Shown here in pieces: positions 2,226 through 23,796 of a DNA stretch of 64,000 bases. Position 1 is the first letter of the stretch. The number at the start of each line of letters is the position of its first letter. Made by a program: the position numbers and the translations under genes. The stretch covers positions 1 through 64,000 of the forward strand of contig NZ_LR734870.1 in assembly GCF_900010725.2 (NCBI RefSeq). The letters are read 5' to 3'. Under the pieces are notes generated by a model, which was not told the DNA's origin, made no database searches, and was given only the letters and a program-made list of their open reading frames with translations. The stretch comes from Planktothrix serta PCC 8927 (GTDB taxonomy: Bacteria; Cyanobacteriota; Cyanobacteriia; Cyanobacteriales; Microcoleaceae).

Positions 2226-2451
2226 TTACATAGATTGCTGGAGTTCTAATAACGCTTCTCCTAAATTGCGATAAAACCATAAATGAATCGGTTCTCCTTG
2301 CAATTCTATCCCTTTTTGATAACAATTAATCGCTTCTTTTAAATAGCCTTGACGATGTAATTGTTGTCCTAGATCCTGATAAATCTCAGGATCGGTAGGA
2401 CTATTTTTATGAATTTCCCGATAGCGAAATAGAGGATCTAAGTTAACTCCC
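2226..2451 (-). other. Out-of-phase 3' extension of the TPR gene
   Basis: On the minus strand an open frame continues past the A10 tract and encodes about 75 more residues, including DPEIYQDLGQQLHRQGYLKE and a NLGEALLELQQ segment, ending in TAA at 2226-2228. These are TPR-like helices, so this is the natural C-terminus of the upstream protein. It is one nucleotide out of phase: it would be reached if one A of the ten were missing in DNA or RNA, or by a +1 ribosomal shift. It could be a sequencing error, a phase-variable tract or transcriptional slippage. Confidence 0.7.
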
Positions 2452-4032
2452 TTTTTTTTTTGAAATCACACGACCCATCGCTTCATAAGCTAAATCAAAA
2501 TCTGGTTTGAGGTTAATAGCTTTTTGCAAATAAGCGAGTGCATCTTGATAGTTTTCCTTCTGTTCTAAGGCTTCTCCCCAATGTAAATGAATATCGGGAG
2601 AATGGGGATAAATTTCACAAGCACGCCGATAACAACTAATGGCTTCATCCCACTTTTGTAACATCGCAAAGGTATGACCTAACAGGTGATAAGCAATCGG
2701 AGATCCAGGGTTGAGAATACAAGCTCGACGTAAAGCTACAATTGCATTTTCAATGTCACCTTGTTGTCGGAGAGTTTGTCCTAAATTTTGATAAGATTCA
2801 AAGGAAGCAGGAATAAACTCTTGGGTACGACGATATTGAGCGATCGCTTCTTCAAATTGACGTTGTTTGTCTAAAATTTGTTGTAAGCGAAATTGAATTG
2901 TACTAGGATTTTCTGGATTTAGTTCTAAGGCTTGGCGATAGGTGGCGATCGCTTCTTCCCATTGATAAAATTGCGCTAAAGCCTGTGCTAATTCATCATA
3001 TAATTCAGCCGAGGTAGGTTCTAAATGACAAGCTTGACGATAAACTGTAATCGCTTCTTCCCAATTATAAACTTGAACCAATGCTTCAGCTAAACCCCGT
3101 TGAGATTCAACAGAATCAGGATTAAGTTCAATACAACGCCGATAAACCGTTACAGCTTCTTCCCATTCATTTTGTTTAGCTAAAGCTTTTCCTAACTGTT
3201 CATAAGCCTCTACAAAATTAGGATGGAGTTCACAAACTCGACGTAAAGCGATGACAGCTTCTTCCCATTCTTGTTGATGAATTAATGCTGTTCCTAAATG
3301 ATAATAAGCTTCCGCCGAATTAGCATTAACTTGACAACATCGACGAGAGAGGTTGATAATTTCCTGCCATTGTTCCTGCTGTTCTAAGATTTCTCGCAAA
3401 TTCTGGTAAGCTTCGATTAAATTAGGATTCAATTGACAAGCCCGACGATAATTGTTGACGGCTTGATCAGTTTGACCCAATTGCTCTTGAAGTTTGGCTA
3501 ATTCCAAATAACATTCTGACCAATAGGGGTTAATTTGTAAGGCTTGATGGTAAGCAGCGATCGCTTCTTCTGCTTGGTGCTGTTGTGTGAAAGCCTGTCC
3601 AAGATGGTAATAGATTTCCCCATCCTTGGGTTGAAGTTCTAACGCCTTGTGAAAGGAGGAAATCGCTTCGGGAATATTACCATCTTGAGTCAGAGCGATG
3701 CCCAAATTCATGTAAAATTCATAAAAACTGGCATCAAGAGCAATCGCTTTTTGAAAGCAACGAATCGCTTCCTTTGAATGTCCCGCTTGCAGTTTGACAC
3801 TCCCTAAGCGATCATGAAACCAAGGGGAATTAGAGTTGAGATCAACAGCTTTTTGGTAAGCGGCGATCGCTTGTTCAATACTTCCGGTGTTGACGAGAGC
3901 TTCCCCTAAGTTATAGTAAGACCAAGCCGACGTCGGATTTTCCTCAATCGCTTTCTGGTAACTTTCGATGGCATTTTCAAACTGGTTTCTTCTTAACAGT
4001 TGATTGGCGGTCTCAAAATAGCTAACACTCAT
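2443..4032 (-). CDS. TPR-repeat protein, frame-interrupted at an A10 tract
   Basis: A 529-residue protein made almost entirely of 34-residue tetratricopeptide repeats (about 14-15 units, each with the A...Y..A...P pattern, e.g. EAIAAYHQALQINPYWSECY). There is no signal peptide or membrane segment. TPRs form a superhelical protein- or peptide-binding scaffold. The frame stops right after a run of ten A (plus-strand T run 2452-2461) as ISKKKGS, but TPR sequence continues in another frame to 2226. It is convergent with the glycosyltransferase at 107 and divergent from the GT-B gene at 4199. Paralogues in this window are fused to glycosyltransferase domains, so a role as scaffold for glycosylation is inferred, not shown. 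Confidence 0.8.
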   Translation of the reverse strand: MSVSYFETANQLLRRNQFENAIESYQKAIEENPTSAWSYYNLGEALVNTGSIEQAIAAYQKAVDLNSNSPWFHDRLGSVKLQAGHSKEAIRCFQKAIALDASFYEFYMNLGIALTQDGNIPEAISSFHKALELQPKDGEIYYHLGQAFTQQHQAEEAIAAYHQALQINPYWSECYLELAKLQEQLGQTDQAVNNYRRACQLNPNLIEAYQNLREILEQQEQWQEIINLSRRCCQVNANSAEAYYHLGTALIHQQEWEEAVIALRRVCELHPNFVEAYEQLGKALAKQNEWEEAVTVYRRCIELNPDSVESQRGLAEALVQVYNWEEAITVYRQACHLEPTSAELYDELAQALAQFYQWEEAIATYRQALELNPENPSTIQFRLQQILDKQRQFEEAIAQYRRTQEFIPASFESYQNLGQTLRQQGDIENAIVALRRACILNPGSPIAYHLLGHTFAMLQKWDEAISCYRRACEIYPHSPDIHLHWGEALEQKENYQDALAYLQKAINLKPDFDLAYEAMGRVISKKKGS

Positions 4033-15551: not shown

Positions 15552-18500
15552 CTAATTATCCTGCACTTTAATACTAAAGTTCTGACAAACTCTTGTCAAG
15601 TGAGGACTATAACAAGGATCATTATCAATATACTTTTGCCAACGTCCTTCAATAATATTTGATTCTCGCTTTAGACGTTCTTTCTTTTCGGGTGTATCTT
15701 CATAACCTCGACTTTTTGATTCATGGTGATAAAGGGTAACGTGAGGTAAATACAAGTTACGATAGCCTTGATCTAACATTTTTAAACACAAGTCTACATC
15801 ATTATAAGCGACCGTCAACTGTTCATCAAAACCCCCTATTTGTTCAAATACTTCTCGCCGACACATCAAACAAGCTCCGGTAACCGCAGAAACATTATTA
15901 AACCCAATAACATTGCCAAAATATCCGGGGATATCAGAAGACATGGCATAATATCCATGCCCGGCAACGCCCCCTAATCCCATGACAACGCCAGCGTGTT
16001 GAATCGTATTATCTGGGAATAATAATAACACTCCTACCGCACCAATTTGAGGACGTTGAACTTGTTCTACCATCGCATTCATCCAGTCAGGATTAATTAC
16101 TTCGGTATCGTTATTTAAGAATAGCAGATAATCTCCCGTTGCTTGACTGACTCCATAATTATTAATTGTGGAGAAGTTGAAGGGAATATCTAATCGATAA
16201 CATTTAAACCGTGAGGGTTCCTGAGAACTCCACTTAGAAAATACTTTAAAGGTATAGTCTTGAACGCTACCATTATCAATGATAATGACTTCATAGTTGG
16301 GGTAGGTTGTTAGAGTAAAAATAGACTCTAAACATCGGTCTAAAACTTCCCCTAAATCTCTTGTTGGAATAATGATGCTAACCTTCTTATAATCGGTAAT
16401 TTCATACCGGACTAAATGATGTCCTAAAAATCCCGGAACTCCTGTTACTATTCCACACTCTCCCCGTCTATTTAACGCATCCTGAATAGCTTTTTCTGAG
16501 GCTATATAAGCATAGGGTTTTGCTTCACTTCCCCCTGCTGTTGAACCCGAGTGCATTCGCCAGTGATATAAAACTTTGGAAATATGAGCAATTTTTTGGG
16601 TTTTTTCGGTAAATCTCAAGACTAAATCATAATCTTGAGCGCCTTCATATCCGATTCTGAAACCTCCAATTTCTTCTATAATAGAACGTCGGTAAGTTCC
16701 TAAATGGCAGGTATACATCCGAGACAAAAAGGATTCAGGGCACCATTCTGGTTTAAAGTAAGGATTAACTAAGTTACCATTGGGACTAATTTTATCTTCA
16801 TCGGAATAAATCATATCTAAATCAGGATTTCGATTTAATAATAAAGCAACTTCATATAACCCATCGGGAGTAATTAAATCATCATGATCCAGCAACGTAA
16901 TAAATTCTCCTGTTGCCAATTCTAAAGCGGAGTTAGAGGATTCAGAAATATGACCATTTTTAGTTCTATAAATGACTTTTATTCGGGAATCTTTGGCTTT
17001 ATATTCTTCTAAAATTTTCTTAACGTGGGGAGAGGGAGAAGCATCATCAGCAATACAAAATTCCCAGTAGGGATAAATTTGATTAATCACAGATTCTATG
17101 GCGTCTCGGAGAAATTCTTCTGGGGTATTATAAACAGGCATAATCACGCTGAATACGGGTTTATAGCTGAATAATTCCATTGTTTCTGCCATTTTGATTA
17201 AATCTGCTGCTCTAGGAAAGTTCTTGTCTCTCCAGAGTTTATACATATAATCTTCAACTAGAATTTGATCTAAAAGTGCTTTTTTTAAACCATTGAAATC
17301 AATTCCTAATGCGGGATCAAGTTCGGATGCACGTCGATAATGATGTAGAGAATCTTCTATTTTACCTTGTTTAGCTAAAGCGGTTGCTAAGTTACAGTGT
17401 GACCAACCAAAATGAGGGTTGATTTCTAAGCATTTGCGGTAAGTTGCGATCGCTTCTTCTGCATTACCTTGTTTTTCTAAAGTATCAGCTAAATTATGAT
17501 AAGACCAGTAAAAACTAGGATTTAATTCAATAGCTTTTTTATAAGATAAAACCGCTTGTTCAAATTTCTTTTGGCGTTGTCGAATATCCCCTAAATTGTG
17601 ATAGGAACCAAAAAAGTCAGGGTTTAATTCAATCGCTTTTTGGTAGCTTTTTGCTGCTGCTTCCATTTCACCTATTTTTTCTAAAGGTTCTCCTAAGTGA
17701 TGGTAAATATCCGATGAATTTGGGTTAATTTCTAAAGCTTTATTGTAAATAGCGATCGCATCTTCAAACTCACTCATCCTGACAAATGCTTCTCCCAACT
17801 TTAGCAATAGTTCAAAGTCTTGGGGTTCAGCATCTTTGACTTTTTTATAATAAATCAGAGCTTGTTCACGCTGATTTTTACTCCATAATAAATTAGCGTA
17901 TTCCCAACATAAATCTAAGTTATCCGGCTGAGATTTTAACAAGGTTTGATAGGCTTCTATATCCCCACTATTAGATTCAATAGACTTTTTATAATATTGA
18001 TTTGCTTTTTCCAAATCTGCGGGGGTTCCTCGGTCTTTTAAAGCATCTGCTAATCGAGAGTAAATATCTGTTAAATTAGGATTTAATTCTAAAGCTTTTG
18101 AATAGGAAACGATCGCAGCATCCCATCGTTCTAATTTGGCTAAAACTTCAGCAAAACTCTGATGACAATCTGCTGATTCAGGATTTAATACAATAGCTTG
18201 AGAATAAGCAGAAACGGCATCTTCCCATTGATTGAGTTGAGCAAAAACATTCCCTAAACCGTGATAAAATATCGCTGTATTGGGTTTAATTTGAATCGCT
18301 TGGGAATAAGCGTCAATAGCTTGATTCCACTGTTTAAAATAAACATAAATATCTCCTAGCACATGATATATTTCTGGCGACTTAGGGTTAAATTCCTGGG
18401 CTTCTAATAATATATTTAGAGCTTCATTAAACAAACCTTTCTGAACTAATACTTTGCCTAATATTTGATAAGCATCTCCTAAATTGGGATTGAGATCAAT

Positions 18501-19019
18501 CGCTTTTCGACAATAATCTATTGCTTCATCCAGTTGACCCCGTTGAGCTAAGGCTTCTCCTAAATATTGATAAGCGATCGCATCTTCTGAGTTAAGTTCC
18601 AGAGCTTTTTGATAGTAACTAATTGCTTGATCTAATTCTCCTTTTTTAAATAGAGCTTTCCCTAAACTATTATAAAATTCCGTAGCATTGGGATTAATAT
18701 CTATCGCCTTTTTAAACACCTTAATTGCATCGGGTAAATTCCCCAATTTTAATAAAACTTCTGCTAATTGGTATTGTGACCAAGCTGAATCAGAATTTAA
18801 TTCAATAGCACGCTGAAACGCTTGTATTGCTTCTAATAGTTGATTATTTTCAGCTAACGCTTCCCCTAAATTATGGTAAATCCAATGAAACTTAGGGTTT
18901 AATTGTGCAGCCTGACGATAAGCCATAATCGCAGCTTGTAACTGACCTGATTGTTTCAGTTGATTCGCTTCTTCTAGTAAATTTGTAGCGGTTTTCAATG
19001 TGTTAGATTTAGATAGCAT
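15552..19019 (-). CDS. TPR array fused to two GT2 glycosyltransferase domains
   Basis: An 1155-residue protein. Residues about 9-590 hold about sixteen TPRs. Residues about 620-800 are a first GT2 domain (VFSVIMPVYNTPEEF, FCIADDASPSP, ITLLDHDDLITPDG, MIYSDEDK). Residues about 875-1110 are a second (KVSIIIPTRDLGE, VIIIDNGS, LLFLNNDTEVINPDW, GGFDEQLTVAYNDVDLCLKM), of the rhamnosyltransferase-like type. Both DXD-type motifs are present (DHDD, NNDTE). It is cytosolic, with no transmembrane helix. It shows in one uninterrupted frame the architecture that the next two genes upstream would have if joined. It probably extends an O-antigen-like or glycoprotein glycan. Confidence 0.85.
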   Translation of the reverse strand: MLSKSNTLKTATNLLEEANQLKQSGQLQAAIMAYRQAAQLNPKFHWIYHNLGEALAENNQLLEAIQAFQRAIELNSDSAWSQYQLAEVLLKLGNLPDAIKVFKKAIDINPNATEFYNSLGKALFKKGELDQAISYYQKALELNSEDAIAYQYLGEALAQRGQLDEAIDYCRKAIDLNPNLGDAYQILGKVLVQKGLFNEALNILLEAQEFNPKSPEIYHVLGDIYVYFKQWNQAIDAYSQAIQIKPNTAIFYHGLGNVFAQLNQWEDAVSAYSQAIVLNPESADCHQSFAEVLAKLERWDAAIVSYSKALELNPNLTDIYSRLADALKDRGTPADLEKANQYYKKSIESNSGDIEAYQTLLKSQPDNLDLCWEYANLLWSKNQREQALIYYKKVKDAEPQDFELLLKLGEAFVRMSEFEDAIAIYNKALEINPNSSDIYHHLGEPLEKIGEMEAAAKSYQKAIELNPDFFGSYHNLGDIRQRQKKFEQAVLSYKKAIELNPSFYWSYHNLADTLEKQGNAEEAIATYRKCLEINPHFGWSHCNLATALAKQGKIEDSLHHYRRASELDPALGIDFNGLKKALLDQILVEDYMYKLWRDKNFPRAADLIKMAETMELFSYKPVFSVIMPVYNTPEEFLRDAIESVINQIYPYWEFCIADDASPSPHVKKILEEYKAKDSRIKVIYRTKNGHISESSNSALELATGEFITLLDHDDLITPDGLYEVALLLNRNPDLDMIYSDEDKISPNGNLVNPYFKPEWCPESFLSRMYTCHLGTYRRSIIEEIGGFRIGYEGAQDYDLVLRFTEKTQKIAHISKVLYHWRMHSGSTAGGSEAKPYAYIASEKAIQDALNRRGECGIVTGVPGFLGHHLVRYEITDYKKVSIIIPTRDLGEVLDRCLESIFTLTTYPNYEVIIIDNGSVQDYTFKVFSKWSSQEPSRFKCYRLDIPFNFSTINNYGVSQATGDYLLFLNNDTEVINPDWMNAMVEQVQRPQIGAVGVLLLFPDNTIQHAGVVMGLGGVAGHGYYAMSSDIPGYFGNVIGFNNVSAVTGACLMCRREVFEQIGGFDEQLTVAYNDVDLCLKMLDQGYRNLYLPHVTLYHHESKSRGYEDTPEKKERLKRESNIIEGRWQKYIDNDPCYSPHLTRVCQNFSIKVQDN

Positions 19020-19120: not shown

Positions 19121-21085
19121 TTAAGGGTTGATTTTTAGCTTAACCTGTCCAAATTTAGCATAAGTTTCGTTATTTAGAACAGCTTGGAATAACAATTCTG
19201 TTTGTCCAGACAAATTTCTGAGTTCAATCGTTTCACAAAATCCACAAAACTCTGAATTTGGGTTTTCAGGATGTAGTAAGCGAACATCAGGACGGGTGAA
19301 GTTAGCAGGAATTTCCTTAATAACTTGACCGTGATTTCCTATAATTTGAACAGCAGTTATTTTCTGCTGTTTCCCCAGTACCCAACCTTTAAAAGTAATT
19401 TGGCTAATTCCCCAATAAGTTTTAATTTCAGGTTGATCTATCGCACAATCCTGTAATACTCTATCATCAAATTCTATGAAAACATCAAAAATTTCTACTT
19501 CAGCAAATTGCCTTAAACTATAATCCGATGCAGACAACGTTAAATTAGGATTATAACAGGGATCGTGATCAACATAACGTTGCCATCTTTGTCGTGTAAT
19601 CGCCACTTCCTGCATAAATCGTTGTAACTTATCCGGTGTTGTATCATAACCTCGACTCTTGGATTCATAATGATATAAAACAACGTGAGGTAAATAAATA
19701 TTCCGATAGCCTTGTTCAACGATTTTTAAGCAGAAATCAACATCATTATAAGCCACTGCTAACTGTTCATCAAATCCCCCCACTTGTGTAAATATTTCTC
19801 GCCGACACATCAAACAAGCTGCTGTCACCGCCGAATAATTACTAATAGAAATAATTTGACCATAATATCCGGGGTCTGTTTCCGATGCCAGGCGGTGACT
19901 ATGGGCGGCAAAATGACCAATTCCCACCACAACGCCAGCGTGTTGAACGATTTTATCAGGATACCGTAATAACGCACCCACAGCACCAATAGAAGGCCGT
20001 TGGGCTTGTTCTACCATGGCATCAATCCAATCAGGATGAATGACTTCGGTATCATTATTTAAGAATAGCAAATAATCCCCAGTGGCTTTGCTAACGGCGT
20101 AGTTATTAATCTTAGAAAAATTGAAAGGAATATCTAAAGGATAATATCTAAACCGAGTGGGTTCTTTTTCTTGCCATTTTGCTAAAATTTCCTGAGTTTC
20201 TGCTTCTGTACTGCCATTATCAATCACAATCACTTCATAATCAGGATAAATGCTAAGAGTAAAGATAGATTCCAAACAGCGATTTAAGATTTTTCCTAAA
20301 TCTTTAGTTGGAATAATAATACTCACCCGCTTGTAATCTAAAATTTTATAGCGGATTTGATAGTGTCCTAAATAAATCGGAACATCTTTAACAATTCCCG
20401 GTTCTTTTCTGCGGTCAATTGCATCTTGTAACGCCCGTTTAGCGGCTTCATAAGCGTAGGGTTTCGCCTCAGTTCCTCCGGCGGCAGAACTGCTATGAAT
20501 GCGCCAGTGATAGAGGATTTTAGGAATATGAAAAATATTATCGGTTTTTTCAGTAAATCTCAAGACTAAATCATAATCTTGACTGCCTTCATATCCGGTT
20601 CTAAAACCTCCAATTTGATTAATAATTTCCCGGCGATAAACTCCGAAATGACAGGTATACATCCGAGATAAAAAGGAATCAGGACACCAATCTGGTTTAA
20701 AGAAATGACCTGTTAATTCGCCTTTTTCATTGAGTTTATCTTCATCGGAATAAATCATATCCGCAGTCGGATGTTGATTTAATAAACTCACGACTTCATA
20801 TAAGGCATCGGGAGTTAACACATCATCATGATCTAATAACCCGATAAATTCTCCCGTTGCTAACTCTAAAGCAGAATTAGAAGTTGCAGAAATATGACCG
20901 TTTTTAGTTCTAAAAATGACTTTAATTCGGCTATCTTGCTGTTGATATTCTTCTAATATCTGTCTAACATGAGAAGCAGTTGAAGCGTCATCCGCAATAC
21001 ACAATTCCCAATTCGTATAAACCTGATCTAACACCGATTGAATCGCTTCGCGGAGAAACGTTTCAGGGGTATTATAAACAGGCAT
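19121..21085 (-). CDS. Tandem GT2 glycosyltransferase; probable -1 frame continuation of the upstream TPR gene
   Basis: 654 residues from the first ATG. Residues 1-200 are GT2 (MPVYNTPETFLREAIQS, CIADDAS, IGLLDHDDVLTPDA), about 250-500 a second GT2 (VSIIIPTKDLGK, LLFLNNDTEVIHPDW), and about 555-650 the accessory domain (ITFKGWVLGKQ, RPDVRLLHP, GF). The ATG falls inside the first conserved strand: the family normally starts this motif with LISIIMPVYNTP, and exactly that LISII precedes the ATG in frame. The frame is open, with no stop, up to the A AAA AAG heptamer at the end of the TPR gene. It is therefore probably made as the C-terminal part of a TPR-GT2-GT2 protein. Close paralogue of the GT half of the 15552 gene. 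Confidence 0.8.
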   Translation of the reverse strand: MPVYNTPETFLREAIQSVLDQVYTNWELCIADDASTASHVRQILEEYQQQDSRIKVIFRTKNGHISATSNSALELATGEFIGLLDHDDVLTPDALYEVVSLLNQHPTADMIYSDEDKLNEKGELTGHFFKPDWCPDSFLSRMYTCHFGVYRREIINQIGGFRTGYEGSQDYDLVLRFTEKTDNIFHIPKILYHWRIHSSSAAGGTEAKPYAYEAAKRALQDAIDRRKEPGIVKDVPIYLGHYQIRYKILDYKRVSIIIPTKDLGKILNRCLESIFTLSIYPDYEVIVIDNGSTEAETQEILAKWQEKEPTRFRYYPLDIPFNFSKINNYAVSKATGDYLLFLNNDTEVIHPDWIDAMVEQAQRPSIGAVGALLRYPDKIVQHAGVVVGIGHFAAHSHRLASETDPGYYGQIISISNYSAVTAACLMCRREIFTQVGGFDEQLAVAYNDVDFCLKIVEQGYRNIYLPHVVLYHYESKSRGYDTTPDKLQRFMQEVAITRQRWQRYVDHDPCYNPNLTLSASDYSLRQFAEVEIFDVFIEFDDRVLQDCAIDQPEIKTYWGISQITFKGWVLGKQQKITAVQIIGNHGQVIKEIPANFTRPDVRLLHPENPNSEFCGFCETIELRNLSGQTELLFQAVLNNETYAKFGQVKLKINP

Positions 21086-21245
21086 AATAATACTAATCAG
21101 GGGTGTAGTGAGCCCTTTAGGGCTATGATCCCTGAAGGGCTCACTACGGGTTGTGTTGTATTTTAGCCACGCCTGATAGAGTTGTTCATACTCAGATTGA
21201 GATTGAGAGACGGAAAAGTAGGGCGTTAACCTAGCTTTTTTTTTT
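21086..21245 (-). other. Slippery A AAA AAG site and in-frame linker joining TPR and GT2 frames
   Basis: On the minus strand the TPR frame ends GAA AAA AAA AAG CTA GGT TAA (A10 at 21236-21245, stop 21226-21228). The zero-frame heptamer A AAA AAG is the slippery type used by bacterial dnaX. A -1 shift there reads GCT AGG TTA ACG... without any stop into the GT2 gene, giving a linker that includes SEYEQLYQAWLKYNTT and LISIIMPVYNTP. The linker also contains a 44-bp palindromic repeat (21105-21147). One extra A in DNA or RNA would have the same effect. Confidence 0.75.
21105..21147. repeat. Palindromic repeat GTAGTGAGCCCTT...AAGGGCTCACTAC
   Basis: Two 18-bp near-perfect inverted arms separated by 7 nt. 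It lies in the stretch that would encode the TPR-to-GT2 linker. A related AGCCCTGAAGGGCT(T)ACTAC unit is repeated twice at 45491-45544. Confidence 0.8.
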
Positions 21246-23796
21246 CCACAATTCCCTCTAATTTTGCAATCACTTCGGGATGCTCCGGTTCTAAATCCAA
21301 TGCCATTTGATAGAATACAATCGCACCATCCAAATGATTATGATTCACTAAAGTATTGGCTAACTGAATATACAATTGGGGATCATCGGGTTTAATCTCA
21401 ATTGCTTTATGATAAGCTGCAACATGATCAGGGTTTTCTTGAATCACTTGATAATAATAATTTAAGGATTCCTGTAAATCCAATTTAGCTCGATTTCTCA
21501 ACGCATCGGCGAGTTTTTCTTGAATATTCGGTAAATCAGATTGAACTTTAATCGCACCCCGATAGGCTACAACTGCTTCTTCCCAATTTTCTAATTGAGT
21601 TAAAACTTCTCCTAAATTATAGTAAGACCAAGGGAATTGAGGATTATGTTTAATCGCATTTTGATAAGCAGGAATTGCCTCTTCCCAGCGTTCTAATTGA
21701 ACTAAAGCCTCGGCTAAACTATTGTGTGACCAAGAATAGGTTGAATCCAATGCGATCGCATTTTGATAAGCAGAAACCGCCTCTTCCCAGCGTTGTTGTT
21801 TAAACAAAATATCCGCTAAATTATTATGTGTCCAAAATACACTCGGATTAAGTTCAATTGAACGCTGATAAGCAATAATTGCCTGTTCAAACTGTTCTTG
21901 ATCTCGGAGTAAATCCCCTAATTTTTGATAAACTTCGGCATTATTTCCATCAAGTTCGGCAGATTTTTGATAGGCGGGAATTGCGGCTTGCGCTTCCCCA
22001 ACTTTTGCCAGTGCATCCCCTAAACCTTTATAGGCTTCTGCATCTCCACTGGGATTCATCTGTACTGCTTGACGCAAGACTTTAACAGCATCTTGCCAAT
22101 TTTCTTGTTTAACTAAAACTTTGCCTAATCCATAATAGGAAGACACCAATTTAGGATTTAAAGCAATTGATTTTTGATACAGGTTAACCGCTTCATCTAA
22201 CCGCCACTGACGATTAAAAATCTCCCCAACTTTGTAATAGGCAACGGCTTGATTAGCATCTAACCCCAAAATTTGGTTATAAACCCTGATCGCCTCATCC
22301 CAACGTTCTTGATGACTAAAGAAATCGGCAAACCCATAATAAAATTCTAATCGGGAGGGTTCTAATTCTAAGGCTTTTTGGTAAGCATGAATCGCCCCTT
22401 CTAGTTCCCCTTTTCTATAATATAATTGCCCTAACTGATAATAAGCTCCTGCCAACTCAGGATTTAATTGTAACGCCTGTTGATAAGCGCCGATCGCCTC
22501 ATCTAATCGACCTTGTTTAAAGCGGGTATTTCCTAAATTAAAATGTTCTTCGGCTGTAGCTTTTTCTGGTTCTAAACTATAGGCTTTTTCCAAACATTGA
22601 GAGGCTTGATCTAACTGCCCCATTTGGGTTAAAACCTTAGCAAAATTGCGATAAACCCCAGCAAAATCCGGCTTTAAATTAACAGCTTGTTGATAATAGG
22701 AGGCAGCTTTTTCTAACCGTTCTTCTTGAGCATATAAACTGCCTAAATTTGCATAAACTTCGGGATATTGGGGCTGAATTTCTAACGCCTTTGAATAACA
22801 GCGAACTGCCGCCGACATTTCCCCTAAAATTTGTAAAGCATTGCCTTGAATTTTATAAGCTTCTGCTAAATCAGGTTTTAATCGTAACGCTTTTTGACAG
22901 GCTGCGATCGCTTGATCCCATTCTTTCAAAGCACAATAGGCCTGAGCTTGTTTTAAATAAGTTTGGGGATTACTGGGATGATTCATCGGGGGTGTTATCC
23001 CATTATTCACCGTTGGCTGTTGAGTCGCCCCGGCCAAGGTATCTTGAGGAGAAAGCTCAACATTCACCGTTGTTCTTGTTGCTGTGGCGGCGGCTAAGGT
23101 ATCCGAAGGTGCGAGAGGAGTATTGATCTCAATCGCTTTGCGGTAAACCTGTGTTGCTTCCTGCGCCTTCCCCTGTTCTTTGAGGAGGGTTGCCAAACCT
23201 TGATGGGCTGCTGTTAAATTAGGATTGAGTTGAATAGCCCTGCGATAACAGGCTTCTGCTGCTTGGACTTCCCCTTGCTGTGCTAACTGATGACCTAAGT
23301 TTAAATGTTCTTCTGCTGTTGCTTTATTGGGTTCTAACCTCAAGGCCTGATATAATGCTTTTGCTGATTCCTGTGGTTCGTTGAGTTGTGTCCAAACTCT
23401 CGCCAAATTGCGATAGGCCCCTGCGAAATCCGGTTTTAGCATCACAGCTTTTTGATAACAAGCGATCGCCTGTTGCCATTGTTGCGCTTTAGCGTACAGA
23501 CTCCCCACATTAGCATGAACTTCTGCCCAATTGGGTTGAATTTCCAACGTCCGGGTATACCAGTGTTGCGCCTCTTGGGGTTTCCCTTGGCGTTGTAATA
23601 TATCCGCCATCAGTTTACAACCGGGTGCATAATCAGACTGAATTTGCAACAACTGGTTACAAGCCTTGATTGCATCCTCAAATTGTCCTTGATTAAAATA
23701 GATTTCTGTTTGTTGATGAAGAAACTGTACACTGCGGGCAGCGATTTCGTTAGGTAACATAGTAGGTTTCAGTTCAGACAATTGATATTTTATCAC
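21226..23796 (-). CDS. Long TPR-repeat protein ending at a slippery A10 tract
   Basis: An 856-residue protein with more than twenty TPR units (e.g. EEAISAYQ-type helices, NNLADILFKQQRWEEAVSAY). A low-complexity stretch near residues 225-275 (repeated DTLA segments) splits the array into two blocks. It ends in VEKKKLG at the A10 tract. Through a -1 shift it would continue into the GT2-GT2 gene, giving a product of about 1560 residues, like the neighbouring 1155-residue TPR-GT2-GT2 protein. TPRs would bind acceptor proteins or partner enzymes. Both a short TPR-only form and a long fused form are possible products. Confidence 0.8.
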   Translation of the reverse strand: MIKYQLSELKPTMLPNEIAARSVQFLHQQTEIYFNQGQFEDAIKACNQLLQIQSDYAPGCKLMADILQRQGKPQEAQHWYTRTLEIQPNWAEVHANVGSLYAKAQQWQQAIACYQKAVMLKPDFAGAYRNLARVWTQLNEPQESAKALYQALRLEPNKATAEEHLNLGHQLAQQGEVQAAEACYRRAIQLNPNLTAAHQGLATLLKEQGKAQEATQVYRKAIEINTPLAPSDTLAAATATRTTVNVELSPQDTLAGATQQPTVNNGITPPMNHPSNPQTYLKQAQAYCALKEWDQAIAACQKALRLKPDLAEAYKIQGNALQILGEMSAAVRCYSKALEIQPQYPEVYANLGSLYAQEERLEKAASYYQQAVNLKPDFAGVYRNFAKVLTQMGQLDQASQCLEKAYSLEPEKATAEEHFNLGNTRFKQGRLDEAIGAYQQALQLNPELAGAYYQLGQLYYRKGELEGAIHAYQKALELEPSRLEFYYGFADFFSHQERWDEAIRVYNQILGLDANQAVAYYKVGEIFNRQWRLDEAVNLYQKSIALNPKLVSSYYGLGKVLVKQENWQDAVKVLRQAVQMNPSGDAEAYKGLGDALAKVGEAQAAIPAYQKSAELDGNNAEVYQKLGDLLRDQEQFEQAIIAYQRSIELNPSVFWTHNNLADILFKQQRWEEAVSAYQNAIALDSTYSWSHNSLAEALVQLERWEEAIPAYQNAIKHNPQFPWSYYNLGEVLTQLENWEEAVVAYRGAIKVQSDLPNIQEKLADALRNRAKLDLQESLNYYYQVIQENPDHVAAYHKAIEIKPDDPQLYIQLANTLVNHNHLDGAIVFYQMALDLEPEHPEVIAKLEGIVEKKKLG

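What the first reader, a model, noticed from the sequence alone, without database searches (positions are those of the whole stretch)
21086..21245. Dna-X-like A AAA AAG slippery site joins a TPR protein to a double glycosyltransferase
The TPR gene stops six nucleotides after an in-frame A AAA AAG (inside A10). A -1 shift opens a stop-free path of 50 codons into the GT2-GT2 gene, restoring the conserved LISII strand before MPVYNTP that the GT2 gene lacks from its own ATG. The fused product matches the architecture of the adjacent 1155-residue TPR-GT2-GT2 protein. So one mRNA could give a free TPR scaffold and a TPR-glycosyltransferase, in a ratio set by slippage, or the A10 could be phase-variable.
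Basis: partly seen in the sequence, partly recalled or inferred. Interest (0 to 1): 0.85.

Follow-up and report, generated by a model that had tools for sequence, protein, structure and literature searches.

The report
Conserved poly-A frameshift in glycosyltransferase gene
In the bloom-forming cyanobacterium Planktothrix, a run of exactly ten A's, identical in the nine species that could be read, sits where one protein stops and a sugar-transferring enzyme begins in another reading frame, so the cell probably makes both a short scaffold protein and a scaffold-enzyme fusion from one gene by letting the copying or reading machinery slip.

Summary
The TPR ORF (21226-23796, minus) ends GAA AAA AAA AAG CTA GGT TAA; the -1 frame runs open through 50 linker codons into a GT2-GT2 ORF. 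The genus is Planktothrix.

G-A10-GCTAGGTTAA is identical in 9 of 9 genus genomes that cover the site (in a tenth the contig ends short), at dS to the window's genome of 0.23-0.74. This argues against sequencing error and phase variation. Variable sites follow the zero frame upstream (4/3/16 by codon position) and the -1 frame downstream (5/2/15; pN/pS 0.115; no stops), so the linker is translated in the -1 frame. No ATG/GTG/TTG at a conserved place could start it.

G-A10-G occurs once in the genome. Of 89 exact A10 sites compared in ten genomes, only this one is shared by nine. A second A10 in the window varies in length.

Other genera encode a plain TPR-GT2-GT2 fusion. Some carry A8-A10 at the junction, but a GT tree does not join those to Planktothrix.

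Best reading: slippage yields TPR and TPR-GT2-GT2. Transcriptional slippage and dnaX-like ribosomal frameshifting are not separated; no dnaX-like stem-loop was found. A new member of a known kind.

The parts
21226..23796 (-). TPR-repeat ORF (856 aa, GTG start as listed), zero-frame product; stops two codons after the slippery site
   Evidence: many TPR Pfam models
21236..21245 (-). A10 tract; exactly A10 in 9 of 9 readable Planktothrix genomes
21235..21241 (-). A_AAA_AAG heptamer in zero-frame phase
21255..21258 (-). SD-like GAGG, 13 nt upstream of the heptamer, present in 9 of 9; an all-GAG column is uncommon (3 of 49 Glu columns of the TPR gene)
   Evidence: 9-14 nt spacing for -1 shifts from PMC5009743 (passage seen)
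21226..21228 (-). zero-frame TAA stop, conserved 9 of 9
21086..21235 (-). 50-codon -1-frame linker; its first 27 codons (21155-21235) are under purifying selection in the -1 frame
21105..21147 (-). palindromic dispersed repeat inside the linker (0, 1 or 2 copies per species, read by eye; frame kept in 9 of 9); 87 nt downstream of the heptamer, too far for a dnaX-type stem-loop
19121..21085 (-). GT2-GT2 tandem glycosyltransferase ORF from its first ATG, which lies inside the start of the first GT2 domain
15552..19019 (-). adjacent plain in-frame TPR-GT2-GT2 paralogue (1155 aa)

Best explanation
The A10 is a programmed slippage site. The unslipped message gives the TPR protein, ending KKKLG. A one-base realignment on the A-run (an extra A in the RNA, or a -1 step of the ribosome on A_AAA_AAG) carries translation into the linker and makes the TPR-GT2-GT2 glycosyltransferase, so one gene gives a scaffold and a scaffold-enzyme in a ratio set by slippage. 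Shown by sequence: the frame break, its conservation, selection on the -1 frame, absence of a start codon at a conserved place, and fused orthologues elsewhere. Inferred: that slippage happens, its ratio, and that the free TPR has a role. Of the two routes I lean slightly to transcriptional slippage (about 0.5) over ribosomal frameshifting (about 0.4); both may act.
For: dS to G000 0.24-0.51 (GT) and 0.23-0.74 (TPR). Variable sites by codon position: upstream zero frame 4/3/16, downstream -1 frame 5/2/15, none in the tract; a frame-switch model beats no switch by 18-23 log units, and the tract lies inside the allowed interval. Linker -1 frame pN/pS 0.115 and 0 stops; the other two frames 1.4 and 2.7 with 18 and 24 stops. 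No ATG/GTG/TTG in the -1 frame before MPVYN in 4 of 9; in 5 of 9 one at +69, +96 or +141 nt. The only one of 89 compared A10 sites shared by nine genomes. Full fusion ORFs in other genera. For transcription: an IS-type transposase in this genome also switches -1 across an A10 without the AAG heptamer; A8-A10 runs fuse IS ORFs in the cyanobacterium Nostoc PCC 7120, and a run conserved in length among all homologues is given there as the mark of purposeful slippage (PMC1088944, Discussion read). For the ribosome: A_AAA_AAG, GAGG at 13 nt, and one tRNA-Lys(UUU) with no CUU among the 35 of 39 tRNAs typed.
Against: No RNA, protein or reporter data. No dnaX-type stem-loop. An ATT codon at -27 in the -1 frame is present in 9 of 9, so a rare non-AUG start is not formally excluded, and the switch interval (-37 to -19 and -11 to +11) does not exclude it. 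Lys codons here are mostly AAA (26 of 37 all-Lys columns are all AAA in TPR), so A-richness alone is weak evidence. Nine related species are not independent. The second A10 site of the window needs the opposite (+1) shift, so it does not support a common -1 mechanism. Other genera do without the split.
Confidence: 0.7

Rival explanations
1. A frameshift mutation fixed in the Planktothrix ancestor and tolerated because slippage on A10 restores enough fusion protein (a 'pseudo pseudogene'); the free TPR is a by-product without a role.
For: Runs of this kind do change length here: at the second A10 of the window (2452-2461) 10 genus genomes have A10 in 5, A9 in 3, A11 in 1 and an interrupted run in 1; the TPR frame passes the run in 3 of 10 (the A9 ones) and stops just after it in 7 of 10. 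A one-base difference separates split from fused arrangements.
Against: At the focal site no length change is seen in 9 species. At the comparator at least four changes are needed among these nine if A10 is ancestral (my reading); at equal rates zero then has a probability of about 0.02. This rests on one comparator, which may be under weaker constraint.
Confidence: 0.2
2. Two separate genes: GT2-GT2 is translated on its own by reinitiation or a non-AUG start after the TPR stop.
For: ATT at -27 in the -1 frame in 9 of 9; a GTG or TTG further down in 5 of 9; the genes are adjacent and on one strand.
Against: No ATG/GTG/TTG before the catalytic domain in 4 of 9 and none at one place in the rest; no shared SD-like sequence in front of the ATT by eye; the ATG at MPVYN drops the start of the GT2 domain; linker constraint is consistent with a switch at the tract.
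Confidence: 0.07
3. Phase-variable tract: replication slippage switches the fusion on and off between cells.
For: A10 tracts are mutable in principle; the 2452 site does vary between species.
Against: Exactly A10 in 9 of 9 species; no A9 or A11. Variation within a strain could not be tested.
Confidence: 0.02
4. Assembly or sequencing error of an in-frame fusion.
For: Homopolymers are error-prone.
Against: Same length in nine assemblies, of which the five that could be matched to named records come from different records and isolates or MAGs.
Confidence: 0.01

Closest known systems
dnaX of bacteria (E. coli -1 frameshift; 'reversed' type with the long product from the shift; Thermus thermophilus A9 transcriptional slippage), as described in PMC5009743 and PMC1088944 (passages seen)
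   Same: A_AAA_AAG or a long A-run; a short and a long product; a zero-frame stop directly after the site as in the reversed type; SD-like GAGG 13 nt upstream, within the 9-14 nt given for -1 shifts.
   Different: Different gene (TPR-GT2-GT2); no 3' stem-loop found; the run is A10; the ratio is unknown.
IS-element ORFA-ORFB fusion by transcriptional slippage on A8-A10, including Nostoc PCC 7120 (PMC1088944, passages and Discussion read)
   Same: A conserved A-run joining an upstream ORF to a catalytic domain in another frame. The focal genome has an IS-type transposase with A10 and a -1 switch in 5 fetched copies (the name is my reading, no family search was run).
   Different: The focal gene is not mobile by its neighbours and lies among glycan genes.
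Tandem GT2 chondroitin synthase (PDB 2z86/2z87)
   Same: Best solved relative by sequence of the GT2-GT2 part, E about 1.6e-31.
   Different: Mainly the first GT2 aligns (query 30-250); no TPR match; substrate unknown here.

Membership tests
Programmed -1 ribosomal frameshift of the E. coli dnaX type | A_AAA_AAG in zero-frame phase | tested here: met
   (9 of 9)
Programmed -1 ribosomal frameshift of the E. coli dnaX type | SD-like sequence 9-14 nt upstream | tested here: met
   GAGG at 13 nt in 9 of 9; spacing from PMC5009743. Only four bases long, so weak.
Programmed -1 ribosomal frameshift of the E. coli dnaX type | stem-loop close downstream | tested here: not met
   z -0.97 for the first 86 nt; consensus fold of 8 of 9 sequences -2.9 kcal/mol, no compensatory pair; the strong palindrome is 87 nt away and absent from G003
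Programmed -1 ribosomal frameshift of the E. coli dnaX type | tRNA-Lys(UUU) as the only Lys tRNA | tested here: inconclusive
   One Lys(UUU), no CUU among 35 of 39 tRNAs typed; the 4 untyped are 81-84 bases long, a length unusual for tRNA-Lys (recalled)
Programmed transcriptional slippage | A-run of nine or more with length conserved in all homologues that share the split | tested here: met
   A10 in 9 of 9; criterion from PMC1088944 Discussion
Programmed transcriptional slippage | extension in the shifted frame conserved at protein level | tested here: met
   pN/pS 0.115, 0 stops
Programmed transcriptional slippage | heterogeneous mRNA at the run | not testable with these tools
   no RNA reads available
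Phase-variable homopolymer | tract length differs among strains or cells | tested here: not met
   A10 in 9 of 9 species; within-strain variation not tested

The most novel reading that the evidence does not exclude
The TPR/GT2 junction is a recurrent slippage switch in this cyanobacterial family, whose default differs between lineages. Where an A8-A10 run is in frame (12 of 13 in-frame orthologues of two other groups) slippage would release a short TPR protein; in Planktothrix (A10, out of frame) slippage makes the long TPR-glycosyltransferase. Because the GT tree does not join these groups to Planktothrix, the run would have arisen more than once, or been lost several times. The TPR to TPR-GT ratio in glycan synthesis would be set by slippage.
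Probability: 0.18. Interest if true: 0.75.

Novelty: new member of a known kind. Interest (0 to 1): 0.58.

Why it matters
Conserved recoding of a bacterial chromosomal gene that is neither an IS element nor one of the classic cases (dnaX, release factor 2) is worth having. Comparing genera (same junction, split or fused) would let one ask whether cells need both the free TPR and the enzyme-bound TPR. Practically, a gene finder that does not model frameshifts will call this gene two genes or a pseudogene, hiding a TPR-glycosyltransferase.

Tried and rejected
Rejected: sequencing error (9 of 9 assemblies agree); phase variation between species (same); the palindrome as a dnaX-like stem-loop (87 nt away, absent from G003); start at an ATG/GTG/TTG at a conserved place.

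Weakened on checking: (a) I had taken the second A10 of the window (2452) as a -1 site, also in my notebook entry; searches show that it needs a +1 shift from A10 in 5 genomes, +1 from the interrupted run in G005, -1 from A11 in G008, and is passed in frame with A9 in G002, G004 and G006. (b) I had thought the A-run older than the genus; the GT tree of 30 rows puts Planktothrix with the plain-fusion paralogues and G013 (100/98), apart from the 12-row group that holds most A-runs (11 of the 12 rows) and from G018/G023 (A10). By GT identity the run-less fusions G013, G025 first copy, G080 and G082 (59-62%) are nearer to the window's gene than the A-run orthologues (52-58%). (c) An A8-A10 at the junction is only moderate evidence: 111 of 166 other Lys-Lys pairs in those 13 ORFs are AAA AAA.

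Led nowhere: literature for a description of this case. Searches (0 papers; 1; 9; 1; 18; one listed; 2) showed nothing on a TPR-glycosyltransferase frameshift in titles and starts of abstracts; of these papers only PMC3711429 and PMC5009743 were opened, for passages. One search (dnaX, 1 paper) and one search (Planktothrix palindromic repeats, 2 papers) were not followed; one search returned none. One search (a guessed pattern in 13 genomes of three other genera) found 0 of 13.

Full report
What is there. On the minus strand the TPR ORF 21226-23796 ends ...GTG GAA AAA AAA AAG CTA GGT TAA, with A10 at 21236-21245. The -1 frame from the same run reads GCT AGG TTA ACG... and stays open for 50 codons to the ATG at 21085 and on through a GT2-GT2 enzyme. 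With the linker, Pfam Glycos_transf_2 aligns from profile position 1; from the ATG it starts at position 4 (191.7 against 184.5 bits). The next gene, 15552-19019, is an in-frame TPR-GT2-GT2 protein 67% identical over 531 residues.

Where it is. The surrounding genes include GT2, a weak GT1 match, GT61, a weak sulfotransferase match, FkbM methyltransferase with GT92 and GT11 matches, further TPR proteins and an S41 peptidase: a glycan cluster by its parts. The substrate is unknown. The best solved relative of GT2-GT2 is chondroitin synthase 2z86/2z87.

Conservation. The genus search returned 10 genomes. In G005 the contig ends inside the GT2 ORF. In the other 9 of 9 the string G-A10-GCTAGGTTAA is identical, the zero frame stops at the same TAA, and the -1 frame is open to LISIIMPVYN. 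dS to the window's genome is 0.24-0.51 for the GT part and 0.23-0.74 for the TPR part.

Frame of selection. Over 90 nt upstream of the tract, variable sites fall 4/3/16 on zero-frame codon positions; over 81 nt downstream they fall 5/2/15 on -1-frame positions; none lies in the tract. A model with a switch of frame beats no switch by 18 (all -1) to 23 (all zero) natural-log units; the position weights were mine. The allowed switch points (-37 to -19 and -11 to +11 around the first -1 codon) include the tract but do not pin it. Linker pN/pS in the -1 frame is 0.115 with no stops; in the other two frames it is 1.4 and 2.7 with 18 and 24 stops over the nine sequences. The linker also carries a palindromic repeat of about 45 bp in 8 of 9 species (none in G003; two copies in G002, G007 and G008; read by eye; the strict pattern finds only part of them), and the -1 frame is kept in all nine.

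No other way in. In 4 of 9 genomes there is no ATG, GTG or TTG in the -1 frame between its last stop and the ATG of MPVYN; in 5 of 9 there is one, at +69 (TTG, two genomes), +96 (GTG, two) or +141 nt (GTG, one). An ATT at -27 is present in all nine, so a rare non-AUG start is not formally excluded.

Chance and controls. G-A10-G occurs once in the 6.27 Mb genome. Exact A10 runs number 107 in ten genomes. I compared 89 of them: the 9 focal sites and 80 of 98 others; the 18 left out are all T-A10-G sites of G008. The focal site is the only one shared by nine genomes; the next is shared by five, the one after by four. In a rough test on about 200 nt of flank, among sites open on both sides, the open frame differs across the run only at the focal site (-1, 9 of 9), at a second site of this window (+1, 5 of 5) and in an IS-type transposase of the window's genome (-1, 5 copies). 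The transposase name is my reading.

The second site as a yardstick. It lies at 2452-2461, at the end of TPR ORF 2443-4032; the +1 frame continues as more TPR. Over ten genomes the run is A10 in 5, A9 in 3, A11 in 1 and interrupted in 1. The TPR frame passes the run in the three A9 genomes: in G002 into the same extension, in G006 and G004 into other, short ends; in the other 7 of 10 it stops just after. So such a run does change length in this genus, which gives the constancy of the focal run some weight, though this comparator may be under weaker constraint. It resembles the 'pseudo pseudogene' class of PMC1088944 (Discussion read).

Other genera. In the family search (61 genomes; listing capped) the near full-length matches outside the genus lie in open frames of 1042-1138 aa (G013, G025, G080, G082) or 1491-1607 aa (13 others), except G030 (719 aa). 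The first four are plain fusions without a run at the junction. Of the 13 others, all in frame, 12 carry an A8-A10 run at the end of the TPR domain (A10 in G018 and G023; the second copy of G025 lacks it); G030 has A10 and a frame break that needs a +1 shift, and could be real, decayed or an assembly fault. One extra base in those 12 runs would bring a stop within 4-13 codons in 11 of 12 (51 in G029); one base fewer, within 4-73 codons. This is suggestive, not strong: elsewhere in those 13 ORFs 111 of 166 Lys-Lys pairs are AAA AAA, and A8 or longer runs occur 17 times in 60,210 nt. Against a common origin, a tree of the GT part (30 rows) joins Planktothrix to the plain-fusion paralogues and G013 (100/98), not to the A-run groups.

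Mechanism. For the ribosome: A_AAA_AAG in phase, GAGG 13 nt upstream in 9 of 9 (PMC5009743 gives 9-14 nt for -1 shifts; passage seen), and a single Lys tRNA (UUU) among 35 of 39 typed. Against: no stem-loop near the site. For the polymerase: the run is long enough by published criteria; runs of A8-A10 fuse IS ORFs in Nostoc PCC 7120 (PMC1088944); and an IS-type transposase here switches -1 at A10 without the AAG heptamer. PMC3711429 reports frameshifting of 10, 40 and 63% for reporter cassettes with 7, 9 and 11 A's (passage seen), so efficient slippage of either kind at ten is plausible. I put polymerase slippage slightly first, without proof.

Odds. On checking I lowered the best explanation from 0.82 to 0.7, the polymerase lean from 0.55 to 0.5 and the novel case from 0.3 to 0.18, because the second site shifts the other way and the tree does not support a family-wide origin; the rivals were trimmed so that the readings exclude one another. 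That the fusion is made by slippage at all, selected or tolerated, I put at about 0.9.

What is not shown. No RNA, protein or reporter evidence exists here; the ratio, any regulation and a role for the free TPR are inferences. The literature searches named in Tried and rejected found no description of this case in the held library, which lacks most subscription journals.

Noticed in passing
window 2452-2461 (-): A second A10 at the end of TPR ORF 2443-4032; the +1 frame continues as further TPR sequence to about 2227. In ten genus genomes A10 in 5, A9 in 3, A11 in 1, interrupted in 1; the TPR frame passes the run in the three A9 ones.
   Followed up: partly
window 21105-21147; also G000:C41:14824-14912 and the linkers of other species: A palindromic dispersed repeat of about 43-45 bp inside the coding linker (reads RSEAFTPHSPEGLTT-like), 0-2 copies per species; resembles palindromic elements that insert inside genes (comparison recalled).
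   Followed up: partly
L264 (G030:C280), about 200 nt upstream of the GT2 start: Another genus of the family has A10 and a frame break at the same TPR/GT2 junction, but needing a +1 shift; could be real or an assembly or gene-decay case.
   Followed up: partly
L138, L139, L140, L145, L147 (window's genome): Five copies of an IS-type transposase split by GA10C with the rest in the -1 frame, as in known slippage-decoded IS elements (name from reading, no family search).
   Followed up: partly
G008, T-A10-G sites (fetched: L179-L182, L188, L196): 24 T-A10-G sites in one genome; the six fetched share their flanks and four of six show one open frame across the run: probably a multicopy element carrying an in-frame A10. 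The other 18 were not fetched.
   Followed up: no
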